From Marchantia polymorpha subsp. ruderalis (lineage: Eukaryota; Streptophyta; Marchantiopsida; Marchantiales; Marchantiaceae), in NCBI GenBank assembly GCA_037833965.1, contig AP031351.1, forward strand, positions 136,501 through 200,500: DNA of 64,000 nucleotides, in the 5' to 3' direction. The notes beneath the pieces were generated by a model. That model had not been told where the DNA came from. It saw only the letters and a list, made by a program, of their open reading frames with translations, and made no database searches. The position numbers and the translations under genes are program-made. Shown in pieces: positions 20,725 to 26,388 of the stretch. Numbering within the stretch: position 1 is the stretch's first letter; each line of letters opens with the position of its first letter.

Positions 20725-23700
20725 TCAAGGAAATATTCCACTGACTTTGTAACAAGTTGCAATTCTTTCTATGGCTATCAGATATGCAGCAGTGCGATAG
20801 TTGCAACCCTGCATTCGACATGATTTGAGGACCCAACGAAACGTCAGTGGGTCTCATTCAGCACTAGCTTCTATTTGGTATGTAAGAGCGAGATCTAGGA
20901 AGAGGTGGGCTGTTACTTCTTCTGATGAATCCACTTGGAACTAAGTCGAAATACCCAAATGAAGTCCCGAAGGCTTTTCTTAATACGTCTCAGAACTCAG
21001 AACATCCTACACGAACATATCTACTATTTCCAAGAATCCAGTGTTACGCACCTTTATTGGCTTGCGAACGTTGACAACAATTGGTATAATTGTTAAGTCG
21101 TGTTCTACAGAGTAAAGGTGGATTGAATGGTGTTGTCCCAAAATAAATATGGGGTTCAAATCCTGGAGAATGTTTAGAAAGTGGTATGTTTACCTCGAAT
21201 GCCTTGTGCTTAATATCTCACGTCCACGGAATAAGAACATTACCTTAATCTGGGCTGTGCGTCTAACGTTGTCCCAACTGACCAGCATAGTTTCTTCTAG
21301 GCCCGAGTACACAAAATCAACCTCTGTGTTCCTGCAGCAATATCCCAGATACAAGACTGATTCAGAACCTAACTGTAGTTAGCAGGTCGATCAAAGTACC
21401 GTTGTTTTTGAGTTAAGGTGTTACCCTTTCACAATCTGTCTGCGAAGATCCTCTGAGAGTTTGGTTCCATTGCCAAACTGGTTCTCAAGCGCATCAATCA
21501 AGGCCTGTGCGACAGTCCAAATCCAGTTGAAATCGTCAAGTAAAGTTTGTCCCAACTGGGAGGATCGGTAAAAGAGATGACACAAGTCCGTTGTAGTGGA
21601 TGGAGGTATGAAGCTACCTTCTTACCACTCTCCTCCATCCTCCTACTCATTCGTCCAAAATGCATGTGGTTCAGATTCTTGAGCCACTCGAAGTAGGAAA
21701 CAGTAACGCCGCCCTGCGAAGAGAAGCGACCCATTTCCCGCTTGATTATGTGCTGAACAACAGACCAGACCAACTTCTTACCACCTCACGGTTAACGTAG
21801 TTCAGAAGAATTTCGCCTTTACTGCACGACTGTAGCATTCAAGGATCTCACCGTCAGCAGTTAATGCTGAATGATCATAATCTTGGAAATACTGATGTGA
21901 AACTTACAGCATTTAATAACAAATCTGGCAGAATAACAATTCCTCTCTTCTCCAAAATGACTTCAGCTCGGGGTGTCACAGGACCATTAGCAGCCTCAGC
22001 AATCACTTTTGCCTGCCCAACGCAAAGCATATTTAGCTCAGCATAAGGTGGCCTTGACAGCTGGCAAGCAGATCCATGAAGTCATGGTCAAAAGACGATA
22101 ACGTAAGTAAGTTCGATCTCTCAAGTGCATGGTTTTTTAAAACTAAGATGAACCAATCAAAACGATCGTCTTTGTGTGCGTACCTTAATTCTATGCGCGT
22201 TTCGAGAGTGGATCTGAGACTCAAGAGCTGCAGGTATAAGGACATCGCATTCAAGCTCCAGAATCTCTCCAGAGTCCCTTCGCTGCGATCGGAGACATCC
22301 AGATCCAGACAGGCCCGCAGCTCAGTGTCGCAACTCCGCATACCAAGAAAGTCAGCAAATGAAGTGTTTTGGAAATTGAAGGAATTTGGTTGGTTCTGAG
22401 CGCACCGTCGTAGTTCCGGGAAATCCAAGAATAGATTTTTTAGTTGCCTGATAGGCTTTAATTGCAGTAATATCTAGACCTTCTCCTGTCTCGTCAACAA
22501 TCCCTCCATCGTACTCAGCAACAGCTATGATCTTACCTCCAGCAGCTGCTAATTTCTGTGGTGAATAGACAAAGGTGAATCACGAAAATTCATTTGAATG
22601 GCAGCAGCTTGCAATATCTTGAAAATATGTAGAAACTCAGTTAGGAAACCATGTCCAGTAAAAAAAACTTCATGCGGAAACAGCCTACACGACCCACATA
22701 TAAAGAAGAAACGGGTAAGACCATTAGGTGTAGTAGGTTTCATGGAATGAGTATAGGTCAAGGCATTTCGAACTCGCACGAACATCTCGAGTAGGAGTGA
22801 GACTAAGTTCGGCTTTTTCTTAAAAAAACACAAACCCAACTCAGATCTGAGTTGTGCAGATCTCTAAGGCATTGGATATTTCCGACTTAAGGTGGAGAAC
22901 AATTGGAACTCCCGAGTTTTCTCTTGATGCCATATTGAATGGAAAATTCAAAGTTAAGCCCAAATTAATTAAATTCTGGAACAAATCTGGGTGGAAAAGA
23001 GGAAATTAGGGCCATAGTTGATATAGACTCGGAAGCGATAAATTGAAACCCGTAGGAGAAAGAGAACAGTGAGTAGGCAAATCATTAAACTACCTTCTCC
23101 CTGTCCAGAATATACCTCAACCGCTCAAGAGATTGCTTCAAGACCGATGGTTTTCAAGCAATATTCTCATGGGTTCCTCGCACAGGCACAAGGAGTTCCA
23201 GTACTAATCAAGAGTCGTCCCTCTTAACTACAAGAAGACCAAGAGCAAGGAGCGCGCTATACTTCCACGCCTTTGTGTAATTGAAGACGAAACAACTGCC
23301 CTCCATCTCGTAACATGAACTTCCTTAAAAATAAGAGAATATTTATTTGATATTGCTTAAGTCTAATTAACTAAAAAATACTTTTACGGTGGAACAAAAA
23401 AGTACTCTTTACCCCTAGTTTCTGATCCTTAACTCAAAGGCCAAACCTGGTGCTTTTAAGTCGACATTTTTGGGAAATACTTAACGTGGATGACCTAGTG
23501 ACGGTTTCCTTGGTTGACACCTGGTAGCTTTTAACGAACTTCATTTTCAGGGAGAATTCAAACTATAATGATTTCCTTCAAGCTCAAAAAGCCCTCACTC
23601 CTCCGCTTCATCTTCATCCCATTATATTTTTTTATATGACAATTTATTTTAAAATTGCAACGTTGTCTAGGGCAATCAGTTTTTTTAGAATTACAATCAA

Positions 23701-26388
23701 ATACTGCATTACTGCATTCTCACTTGGACATCACTCAGTTTAAGGGAACAACGCAAAACTGAGTCCAGCTTACATCGGCAGTATGTCGACCAACATTTCC
23801 AAACCCTTGAACAATAAATGTCTTGCCTTTCACACCAGGGTTCATGTTTAGCTTTGAAACCAATTCCTGGGGGCCAAGAAACAAGTCAGAATAGTTCATC
23901 AGGGTTCATGTTAAGCTTTGAAACCAATTCCTGCGGCCCAAGAAACAAGTCAGAATAGTTCATCTTACAATGAGCAGTCTGTACGTTGCACCGAAGTAAT
24001 ATCCACAACCTACATCAATCAACTAGATGAAACCAGGGTTGCTCGAACCTTGTCGTTCAAAAATTCTCTCACGCAAAAGAAAACACCCAGTCCAGTTGCT
24101 TCTTGCCTACCATCAATTCCACCCTGAAAAGTGCAGAGGCTTTATCAAACTCTTCCTTAAATCATATTCAAAAGGTTTTCTAGACAATTTTCGTGAAAGG
24201 TCATGTATTCTTTGTGCGCAATCGCCGAATTGTCTGCTTACTCACAAACTGATTTCAATTTTTTTGAGTTTTTTACCATCTAAATATCTTGTTCAGGTAG
24301 GCATTTCCATACACTACCTCTTCAAGAGGTTTCCCAGTTACACAGGCAGAACCGTTGATGTCTGTAGGGCGCAAATGTTCGAAGGTGTCCTGTAATAATT
24401 AAAATCAATTGGTACAACAGACTCACCTCATCAGAAATGAAAATGGTTCTTTTATTTAAGTATAAGTCATCAACGTAGCTGAATAGAAATGGAAGAGGTT
24501 TATGTTCATGGTCTGGCATATGAACTTATTACTATCTAACAAGACAATTAAATATTTAACTGCTAGAATGGGAGGACAATTTTTCATTCAGACAGTTTTG
24601 TAGAAACTCTCCCCCCTGTACGCGCACACCTCTTGCGAAATGTTTTTTGAAAATGACTATGTAGAAGACTGCAATTGGATCGGATGATTCATCACCTTAA
24701 TCCAGGCCATCTCTTGAGGACCTGTTCCATAATCTGGTGCCGGTACATCCTAGATCATGGACGGCCGATTTATGTTGGTTAGTTTTGTATGGTCGTAAAA
24801 GTCTATGTCTAGTCTTCTACTATGACTCTACTCATGAGACAGTAATATGCAAGAAATGCTGAGTTGCCGCTGCGTTTTATATCGTTCATTATAAAACTTA
24901 GTAAAGACAAATACATAGGTGCCAGTGAGGTAAAAAATTACCAGAGCAGGACCAATAAAGTTCTTTTTAACAAGCTCGCTGGTATATCTTCTGATAATTG
25001 TCTCTTTCTCAGTTGAAGTATACTTGTTTGGATCTGCACATGTGTGCTCATTTTCATCTTGTGAGTTTGCAGCATACATACTGGGTAAAGTTCAGAGAGT
25101 GTTTTCGTGATGTCGTTTCTTAATCCTTTTACTCTCTAGCCTTGATGCCATTACCTATCTTGATTCCACCTTTAGCACCTCCAAAAGGTACATCGACCAC
25201 AGCACACTTGAATGTCATTAAGGCAGCTAAAGCCATAGTTTCATTGGCATCAACATTTGGCGCCATGCGAATTCCGCCTTTGACTGTTGTAAAAACGAAA
25301 CAAATATTAGATCTCAAGCCGATTCTTAGAAGTGGTAATTTACTCGTTGAGATTAAAACCGCCAGCGAAGATAAATAAGTTTGTAACTTCAGAGTTTGAT
25401 ACTTTCGATTTGTACTTCACATCAACATGGCATGGCAACTATGGGTGTCTAGCTCGCACCTGGTAAACGATGATGCGAGTGTTGCGCCCTATAAGCCTCA
25501 ATAAGTTCGACGGTACCATTTCCGCACTTGAGTGGAAACTGCAATCTCATTACATTATTACATGCCTGACCCCCATCTCGAAAACAAAAAATTGTGTTAG
25601 TTCGTTCGGTGGTTGATGGAATCATTTATCTGAAATAGCAAGACATCTGTTCTTACTAGTCCTGAATACTATATCCTACTGTCGTGAGTATGACGTCTAA
25701 TGACTAGTGCTGAAACTGTTCATGAATATTTTGAAACCTTTATTTGTGCGAGGATATCGGGAGTCGATTGTGCATAGGCGGCAGCCCTGTCGAAATATAT
25801 ATCTACGGATTCCAAAAAATTCGGATCGCCTGCAAAAGTCAAAAGTAAGCTTAAAGAGGAAGGAAATTACAACAGACACGTAGGGCATTCATGATCCGGG
25901 AACAATGTCTCTTGCCTAGTTTTTGTCTATGAAACTTCTGAACAAAGACCTCAGCAACAATTCAATGTCTGATCACCAGAAAATTATTCTTTCGCGTACA
26001 CAACTTACCCCTGCTAAAGAAATTACTACAAACTTGAATTTCAGCAAGAAAGGGTGATTAGTAAACGAAACGAAGAGCAAGAAAGCGAAGGTGATGAGTA
26101 AACGAAACGAGCTACCGCAGGGTTTAAAAGTGGCACACCATGAGGAGCTGCTCCGTGATTCTCCACTGAGTCTTTAGTTTCAACGATTTGACCAAGAGCT
26201 TGACGAACCGTTCCACCGACAGTAGCTGCAGTGCCAAATTGCCTTCGGCAGATGGTTGGGTGGTGGAGTTGATCCACATTTTGAATTAGTTTCGATAAAC
26301 AGTTGAACTGATTGATTCTCATCGTAGTGCTCGATATCGTTGCTGCCTTCGTCAACAAACAGGCAGTTAACCTGTCAAGGCATTTCAT
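20725..26388 (-). CDS. GDH: mitochondrial glutamate dehydrogenase, animal-like with antenna-sized insert, 16 exons
   Basis: The exons are 26388-26139, 25829-25738, 25565-25460, 25283-25155, 25033-24942, 24749-24696, 24389-24318, 24123-24049, 23866-23774, 22555-22406, 22282-22184, 22012-21908, 21713-21618, 21555-21425, 21331-21244 and 20808-20725. All phases agree, giving about 571 residues. One short exon before the last may be missing. The enzyme interconverts glutamate with 2-oxoglutarate and ammonium. The N-terminus is basic and Ser/Thr-rich, as in mitochondrial presequences. Motifs seen are [26 protein letters not shown] (substrate Lys), DVPAPD, GKPLEEGGIDGR, the Rossmann turn [20 protein letters not shown] and [16 protein letters not shown]. 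About 60 residues separate FGRM from VYSGLEE. That matches the antenna position and roughly its size in animal GDH; ordinary plant NAD-GDH1/2 lacks it. Wording such as [10 protein letters not shown] and SILGFP is also animal-like. NAD preference is inferred from GxGxxG and an acidic residue after strand beta-2. Confidence 0.85.
23836..23963. repeat. 64-bp tandem duplication spanning a GDH splice acceptor
   Basis: Units 23836-23899 and 23900-23963 are 64 bases each with three mismatches. Each carries the end of GDH intron 8, a CAG acceptor and the start of exon 9. The acceptor proximal to exon 9 (exon start 23866) keeps the frame. The distal one (start 23930) would add 64 bases, shift the frame, and reach a TGA after 14 codons. 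Confidence 0.92.

What the first reader, a model, noticed from the sequence alone, without database searches (positions are those of the whole stretch)
20725..26388. Animal-like, antenna-bearing glutamate dehydrogenase in a plant genome
The exons give motifs closer to animal GLUD than to the ordinary plant GDH1/2 ([36 protein letters not shown]). About 60 residues are inserted where the allosteric antenna lies in animal GDH, a part that bacterial and classic plant GDHs lack. Fifteen introns and plant neighbours argue against contamination. Retention of an old eukaryotic GDH type, or ancient transfer, are both possible. If the antenna is functional, this plant could have allosteric control of glutamate catabolism.
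Basis: partly seen in the sequence, partly recalled or inferred. Interest (0 to 1): 0.8.

Follow-up and report, generated by a model that had tools for sequence, protein, structure and literature searches.

The report
Antenna-type glutamate dehydrogenase in a plant
A land plant carries an intact, intron-rich gene for the kind of glutamate dehydrogenase that has a regulatory 'antenna', a part usually described as unique to animals and ciliates; the same kind also turns out to be common in several groups of bacteria, so the plant gene is not specifically animal-like.

Summary
On the minus strand, exactly at 26388-20725, sixteen exons with fifteen GT-AG introns encode one uninterrupted glutamate dehydrogenase (GDH), 554 aa after one splice correction. 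It is the only antenna-GDH locus found in a 241-Mb, 9-contig genome; LEAFY lies on the same contig. The antenna is real: about 41 inserted residues, not 60. The interpretation needs changing. Antenna-type GDHs are widespread in bacteria: strong matches (E <= 1e-120) in 122 of 296 Bacteroidota, 49 of 199 Acidobacteriota and 67 of 84 Poribacteria-phylum genomes. A model of one bacterial relative aligns to antenna-bearing animal structures along its whole length. The plant protein is up to 57% identical to bacterial homologues and 50% to human GLUD1; its antenna is short like theirs. Grouping with the plant's own GDH1 is rejected (p = 0.0005); grouping with human is neither supported nor rejected (p = 0.32). 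The animal GTP and ADP residues tested are replaced, so animal-style GTP/ADP control is unlikely. Origin (old eukaryotic gene or bacterial transfer) is unresolved; no collection of other plants, algae or protists could be searched.

The parts
26139..26388 (-). Exon 1: start codon (ATG 26388; a second ATG at residue 23) and about 83-residue N-terminal extension mostly absent from bacterial homologues, possible mitochondrial targeting peptide
   Evidence: model; bacterial matches begin between residues 65 and 88; first 52 residues: 7 K/R, 2 D/E
25738..25829 (-). Exon 2
25460..25565 (-). Exon 3
25155..25283 (-). Exon 4: VKGGIR and [14 protein letters not shown] with the conserved lysines (human K94, K118, K130)
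24942..25033 (-). Exon 5
24696..24749 (-). Exon 6: [10 protein letters not shown] with the conserved aspartate (human D172)
24318..24389 (-). Exon 7
24049..24123 (-). Exon 8: positions of human H213, S217, R221, here D, E, L
23774..23866 (-). Exon 9: Rossmann motif QGFGNVG
23836..23963 (-). 64-bp tandem duplication (3 mismatches in 64) covering the exon-9 acceptor; use of the upstream copy would end in a stop after 14 residues
22406..22555 (-). Exon 10
22184..22282 (-). Exon 11
21908..22012 (-). Exon 12
21618..21713 (-). Exon 13: [16 protein letters not shown] and start of the antenna (ascending helix by homology)
21425..21504 (-). Exon 14 (corrected acceptor): middle of the antenna
   Evidence: the alternative acceptor (exon to 21555) adds 17 residues that human and the 15 bacterial rows lack
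21244..21331 (-). Exon 15: end of antenna and pivot helix; positions of human H454 (here Y) and R463 (here V)
20725..20808 (-). Exon 16: C-terminal helix and stop; ends GIFP like most of the bacterial proteins listed

Best explanation
The gene encodes a functional nuclear, probably mitochondrial, NAD-preferring hexameric glutamate dehydrogenase of the antenna class. This class is a single clade shared by animals and by many Bacteroidota, Acidobacteriota, Poribacteria and Ignavibacteriota, and is separate from both the ordinary GDH1/2 and the NADP-GDH that the same plant also has. Mechanism, inferred: it interconverts glutamate and 2-oxoglutarate plus ammonium with the conserved ELFV-dehydrogenase site. 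Three subunits intertwine their antennae at each end of the hexamer, and the antenna couples opening and closing of neighbouring clefts (cooperativity). It should not respond to GTP or ADP as the animal enzyme does, because the residues tested there are replaced; its short antenna and altered sites resemble the bacterial form. Shown: gene structure, homology, clade, missing animal effector residues, and a predicted antenna fold in one bacterial relative. Inferred: expression, targeting, antenna fold of the plant protein, coenzyme, regulation.
For: 16 exons, 15 GT-AG introns, 554 codons open. ELFV_dehydrog_N 167 bits and ELFV_dehydrog 204 bits. Full-length relatives in bacteria including antenna and C-terminus. 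Antenna spacing 54-55 in 158 of 168 loci read; of the 10 without the exact pattern, 4 have the antenna with AALE in place of SGLE and 6 are antenna-less rows (2 viral, 4 fetched as other GDHs). At least 5 of the 168 repeat a gene fetched earlier. Antenna and antenna-less rows are split 100/99, also with the antenna columns dropped (only three antenna-less rows). Grouping with GDH1 rejected, p-AU 0.0005. Human K94, K118, K130, D172 kept in the plant protein and in 60 of 60 bacterial rows; the acidic E279 kept in the plant and 58 of 60 (catalytic and coenzyme roles recalled). Model of the bacterial relative L020: pLDDT 89.7; 457-464 of 464 residues align with the listed antenna-bearing animal chains, 389-413 with the listed antenna-less ones. 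GTP residues R221, R269, H454 (PMC11050691, passages, precursor numbers converted by me) are L, A, Y; ADP residue R463 (PMC5372004, passages) is V.
Against: No transcript, protein or activity evidence. The plant protein itself was not folded: a spliced product is not letter-for-letter window DNA, so I did not hand it to the predictor. Its antenna is two to three residues longer than the bacterial one and the protein sits on a long branch (1.3), so the fold is inferred by homology. The 64-bp duplication at the exon-9 acceptor could reduce correct splicing. Some residues near the effector sites (human H89, R90, D123, K391, H395) are kept (their role in ADP binding is recalled), so some nucleotide response cannot be excluded.
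Confidence: 0.82

Rival explanations
1. Transfer from bacteria: an ancestor of this plant (or of a wider plant group) took the gene from an antenna-GDH bacterium, independently of animals; it then gained 15 introns and an N-terminal extension.
For: Best sequence matches are bacterial (57%); short bacterial-type antenna, [17 protein letters not shown] and the GIFP end; bacterial residue at 157 of 166 conserved columns; no clear excess of rare residues shared with human (7 of 79 rare residues; bacterial controls up to 4 of 49, 4 of 35, 3 of 46). None of seven intron positions of the plant's own GDH1 (model joined by eye) coincides with one here; the nearest is 2 columns away.
Against: No bacterial group attracts it with support; long branch; of the placement tests none but the one with GDH1 is rejected. 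Human GLUD1 is just as near to bacteria (57%), so conserved bacterial residues may only be ancestral. Fifteen introns and 57% identity need an old event.
Confidence: 0.45
2. Old eukaryotic gene: an antenna GDH, itself of bacterial kind, was present in a common ancestor of plants and animals and was kept in this plant lineage and lost in seed plants.
For: A clade with human is not rejected (p-AU 0.32); one shared departure at a conserved column (N454 in NLNH) and seven rare residues shared with human, more in number than any of 60 bacterial controls (largest 4); intron-rich, with an N-terminal extension.
Against: Holding plant and human together costs 5.0 log-likelihood units; as a share of rare residues the seven are not in excess; only one animal sequence could be used, and no protist or alga.
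Confidence: 0.45
3. Assembly contamination or a bacterial/animal contig misplaced in the plant assembly.
For: The best matches outside this genome in the collections searched are bacterial.
Against: 15 spliceosomal introns; lies about 160 kb into a 31.5-Mb contig that also carries LEAFY; 2 of 9 neighbouring reading frames tested are a pectinesterase piece and a chitin-binding receptor kinase, the other 7 gave no Pfam match; CDS G+C 0.45 and introns 0.40 against 0.39-0.42 for the four 2-kb blocks around.
Confidence: 0.01
4. A decaying or mis-spliced copy without function.
For: 64-bp duplication creating a decoy acceptor at exon 9; two possible acceptors for exon 14; long branch.
Against: No stop or frameshift in 554 codons; all 15 introns GT-AG; catalytic residues kept; 157 of 166 conserved columns kept.
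Confidence: 0.06

Closest known systems
Animal GLUD1/GLUD2 (bovine, human, worm GDH; EC 1.4.1.3)
   Same: Same clade against antenna-less GDHs (human row); homologous antenna at the same place; 50% identity to human over the aligned 452-residue piece
   Different: FEW-to-SGL segment 8 residues shorter; GTP residues R221, R269, H454 and ADP residue R463 replaced by L, A, Y, V; antenna contact pair S409/R443 replaced by G/I
Bacterial antenna-type GDHs of Bacteroidota, Acidobacteriota, Poribacteria, Ignavibacteriota (no name found; the best NCBIfam scores of three of them are 371-389 bits, to archaeal models with cut-offs of 620 and 750)
   Same: 48-57% identity in the genome searches, short antenna (54-55 against 57), [21 protein letters not shown]-like end
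   Different: Plant gene is split by 15 introns, has an N-terminal extension of about 83 residues and a slightly longer antenna
Plant GDH1/2 (Arabidopsis 6YEH; this genome's C3 locus, named from its reading frames by eye)
   Same: ELFV dehydrogenase fold and catalytic residues
   Different: Lacks the antenna; 275 bits against 448 for human; common clade with the C3 protein rejected; no coincident intron position among seven compared
Plant NADP-GDH (this genome's C6 locus)
   Same: ELFV superfamily
   Different: Different GDH family: a 67-residue piece is nearest to the NCBIfam NADP-specific GDH model PRK09414

Membership tests
Antenna-bearing GDH clade (animals plus bacteria) | ELFV_dehydrog_N and ELFV_dehydrog domains over the Pfam cut-offs | tested here: met
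   167 and 204 bits, cut-offs 25.3 and 23.4
Antenna-bearing GDH clade (animals plus bacteria) | Insert of about 40-50 residues between the coenzyme domain and the pivot helix, homologous to the animal antenna | tested here: met
   Alignment with human and 60 bacterial rows; antenna-less rows have a gap there; spacing counts
Antenna-bearing GDH clade (animals plus bacteria) | Groups with animal GLUD apart from antenna-less GDH, without help of the antenna columns | tested here: met
   100/99 with antenna columns dropped; only three antenna-less rows and one animal row in that tree
Antenna-bearing GDH clade (animals plus bacteria) | Insert folds as a helical hairpin | tested here: inconclusive
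   Predicted for the bacterial relative L020; the plant protein itself was not folded
Animal-type GLUD | GTP-site residues R221, R269, H454 (human mature numbering) | tested here: not met
   L277, A325, Y506 in the plant protein; residue roles from PMC11050691 (passages)
Animal-type GLUD | ADP-site residue R463 | tested here: not met
   V515; role from PMC5372004 (passages)
Animal-type GLUD | Supported sister-group relation to animal sequences | tested here: inconclusive
   Not in the best tree; p-AU 0.32; human is the only animal row
Animal-type GLUD | Allosteric response to GTP, ADP, leucine | not testable with these tools
   Needs the purified enzyme
Plant GDH1/2 | Common clade with plant GDH1 | tested here: not met
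   p-AU 0.0005 against this genome's GDH1
Mitochondrial enzyme | Import into mitochondria | not testable with these tools
   An N-terminal extension, 7 K/R and 2 D/E in 52 residues, is only consistent with it

The most novel reading that the evidence does not exclude
The GDH antenna is not an animal/ciliate invention: it is an old part of a bacterial GDH class, and eukaryotes received it more than once or kept it from an early ancestor. This plant runs three GDH types side by side, with an antenna enzyme whose allostery answers to signals other than GTP and ADP.
Probability: 0.5. Interest if true: 0.78.

Novelty: new variant of a known kind. Interest (0 to 1): 0.6.

Why it matters
Five papers whose passages I read say that plants, microbes or non-animals lack the antenna (PMC1716157; PMC5372004; PMC5192433; PMC12364357; PMC7326016), and PMC11050691 calls it unique to animal GDH, first appearing in ciliates. 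An intact antenna GDH in a land plant, and strong matches to it in 238 of 579 sampled genomes of three bacterial phyla, change that picture. They make the origin and original task of the antenna testable in simple systems: bacteria and an easily transformed plant. They also separate the antenna from GTP/ADP control, since the residues known for the latter are replaced here.

Tried and rejected
First model of exon 14 (exon to 21555, protein 571 aa) was dropped after the alignment; and the tblastn were made with that longer form. Viral contigs: 2 relatives out of 28 stretches, both without antenna. NCBIfam gave no fitting model. Tree with 83 rows (one of the 80 loci, L055, and viral L100 were left out there for short translations) left plant and human unresolved; a wider set of 60 bacterial rows, thinned from 162 at 78% identity, did no better, nor did leaving human and outgroups out. 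Six clade tests rejected only the grouping with GDH1. A count of shared residues gave no clear excess with human. Worm GDH sequences exist (8qf0, 8s3g) but could not be read, since at most five alignments are printed. Andersson and Roger 2003, a GDH phylogeny, is not held. Literature: ten searches, two with capped listings (20 of 69, 15 of 21); among the listings I found no report of an antenna GDH in a plant or of the bacterial class. I saw passages of ten papers and one whole section of one of them (PMC7326016), no whole paper; subscription papers are not held. The E cut-off does not by itself prove an antenna in each genome: 45 of 49, 66 of 67 and 122 of 123 matches reach the last query residue, spacing was read only in fetched loci, and each tally includes the centre genome, which was chosen because it has the gene.
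Full report
What is there. The window lies at 136,501-200,500 of contig 2 (31.5 Mb) of a 241.5-Mb genome held as 9 contigs. A LEAFY C-terminal domain, found in none of 14 control prokaryotes, occurs at one place, as two pieces, on the same contig. That makes it a land plant or a close algal relative; nine contigs of this size fit a Marchantia-like liverwort, which is my inference and was not tested. In my scripts 'Mp' is only a label.

Gene model. Reading the minus strand exon by exon gives 16 exons and 15 introns, all GT-AG, from ATG at 26388 to the stop ending at 20725. 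Aligned with human GLUD1 and 15 bacterial relatives, it showed a 17-residue stretch that none of them has, at the start of exon 14; a second acceptor 51 bp downstream removes it, and its 113-bp intron fits the other introns (93-1218 bp) better than 62 bp. The corrected protein has 554 residues. Neither splice form is confirmed by transcripts. A search of the whole genome with the protein found this locus and weaker matches at one other place, on C3; a Pfam search adds a third GDH locus on C6. From their reading frames C3 looks, by eye, like an ordinary GDH1/2; a 67-residue piece of C6 is nearest to NADP-specific GDH models.

Kinship. The best solved structures are human and bovine GDH (448 bits for the best, aligned over 108-569); Arabidopsis GDH1 scores 275 bits and its match stops before the antenna. 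A scan of prokaryotic genomes changed the picture: 566 of 594 stretches encode relatives, and the 80 kept match from about residue 65-88 to the last or nearly the last residue, antenna included, at 49-54% identity to the longer model. With the corrected model the best is 57%. Sampling whole phyla, 49 of 199 Acidobacteriota, 67 of 84 genomes of the Poribacteria phylum and 122 of 296 Bacteroidota have a match at E <= 1e-120, the centre genomes included; 45 of 49, 66 of 67 and 122 of 123 matches run to the last query residue. In 158 of 168 loci read the spacing FEW to SGL is 54 or 55 residues (plant 57, human 65). Of the other ten, four have the antenna with a changed motif and six are antenna-less rows (two viral, four fetched as other GDHs). 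At least five loci repeat a gene already fetched.

Tree. With 60 bacterial rows thinned to under 78% identity, human, the plant protein and three antenna-less rows, the antenna sequences form one side of a branch with 100/99 support, also when the antenna columns are left out. Inside that side the backbone is star-like. The plant protein and human are both long branches with no supported partner; the best bacterial identity is 57% for each. Clade tests: plant with GDH1 rejected (p = 0.0005); plant with human p = 0.32; bacteria alone p = 0.22; bacteria plus plant p = 0.31; bacteria plus human p = 0.39; plant with nine Chitinophagales-type rows p = 0.36. So the class is firm and the nearest kin is not.

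Residues. At 166 columns conserved in at least 90% of the 60 bacteria, the plant protein keeps the bacterial residue in 157 and human in 146; both share one departure, N in NLNH. Counting rare residues more loosely, it shares 7 with human out of 79 rare ones. The largest count among 60 bacterial controls is 4, but they have fewer rare residues (4 of 49, 4 of 35). I read this as no clear excess. The catalytic lysines and aspartate are kept (roles recalled). The GTP residues R221, R269, H454 become L, A, Y, and the ADP residue R463 becomes V; the antenna contacts S409 and R443 become G and I (contacts from PMC5372004, passages). H454Y is also a human disease variant with decreased GTP inhibition (PMC11050691, table passage, H507Y in precursor numbers). 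Several neighbours in what I recall as the ADP pocket are kept.

How it probably works. A mitochondrial GDH whose trimers are tied by antennae that pass the opening and closing of one cleft to the next. Without the animal GTP/ADP residues it is probably tuned by something else, or uses the antenna for cooperativity only. This part is inference.

What is new. Passages in the papers I read state that plants, microbes or non-animals lack the antenna and that it first appears in ciliates. I found no report of the bacterial class or of a plant antenna GDH among the listings of ten full-text searches of an open-access library; this is not proof that none is in print. No eukaryotic sequence collection was available, so how widely plants, algae and protists have this gene is unknown, and with it the choice between old retention and bacterial transfer.

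Noticed in passing
23836-23963: 64-bp tandem duplication, 3 mismatches, copies the exon-9 acceptor and the first 31 bp of the exon into intron 8; using the upstream copy gives a premature stop. A possible splice-regulated off switch, or just a young duplication.
   Followed up: partly
49531-51315 (+): Uninterrupted reading frame with two stretches of hevein-type chitin-binding domain (PF00187) followed by a kinase domain (PF00069): a chitin-binding receptor-like kinase.
   Followed up: no
31539-31934 (+): Piece of a pectinesterase gene (PF01095), a plant-type neighbour.
   Followed up: no
16351-16493 and 53625-53762: Two further near-identical two-copy tandem repeats, 70 bp and 66 bp, 97% alike.
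   Followed up: no
L020-L099, L104-L183: The large bacterial class of antenna-bearing GDHs has no fitting NCBIfam model for the three members tested and I found no description of it in the searches listed; it deserves a study of its own.
   Followed up: partly
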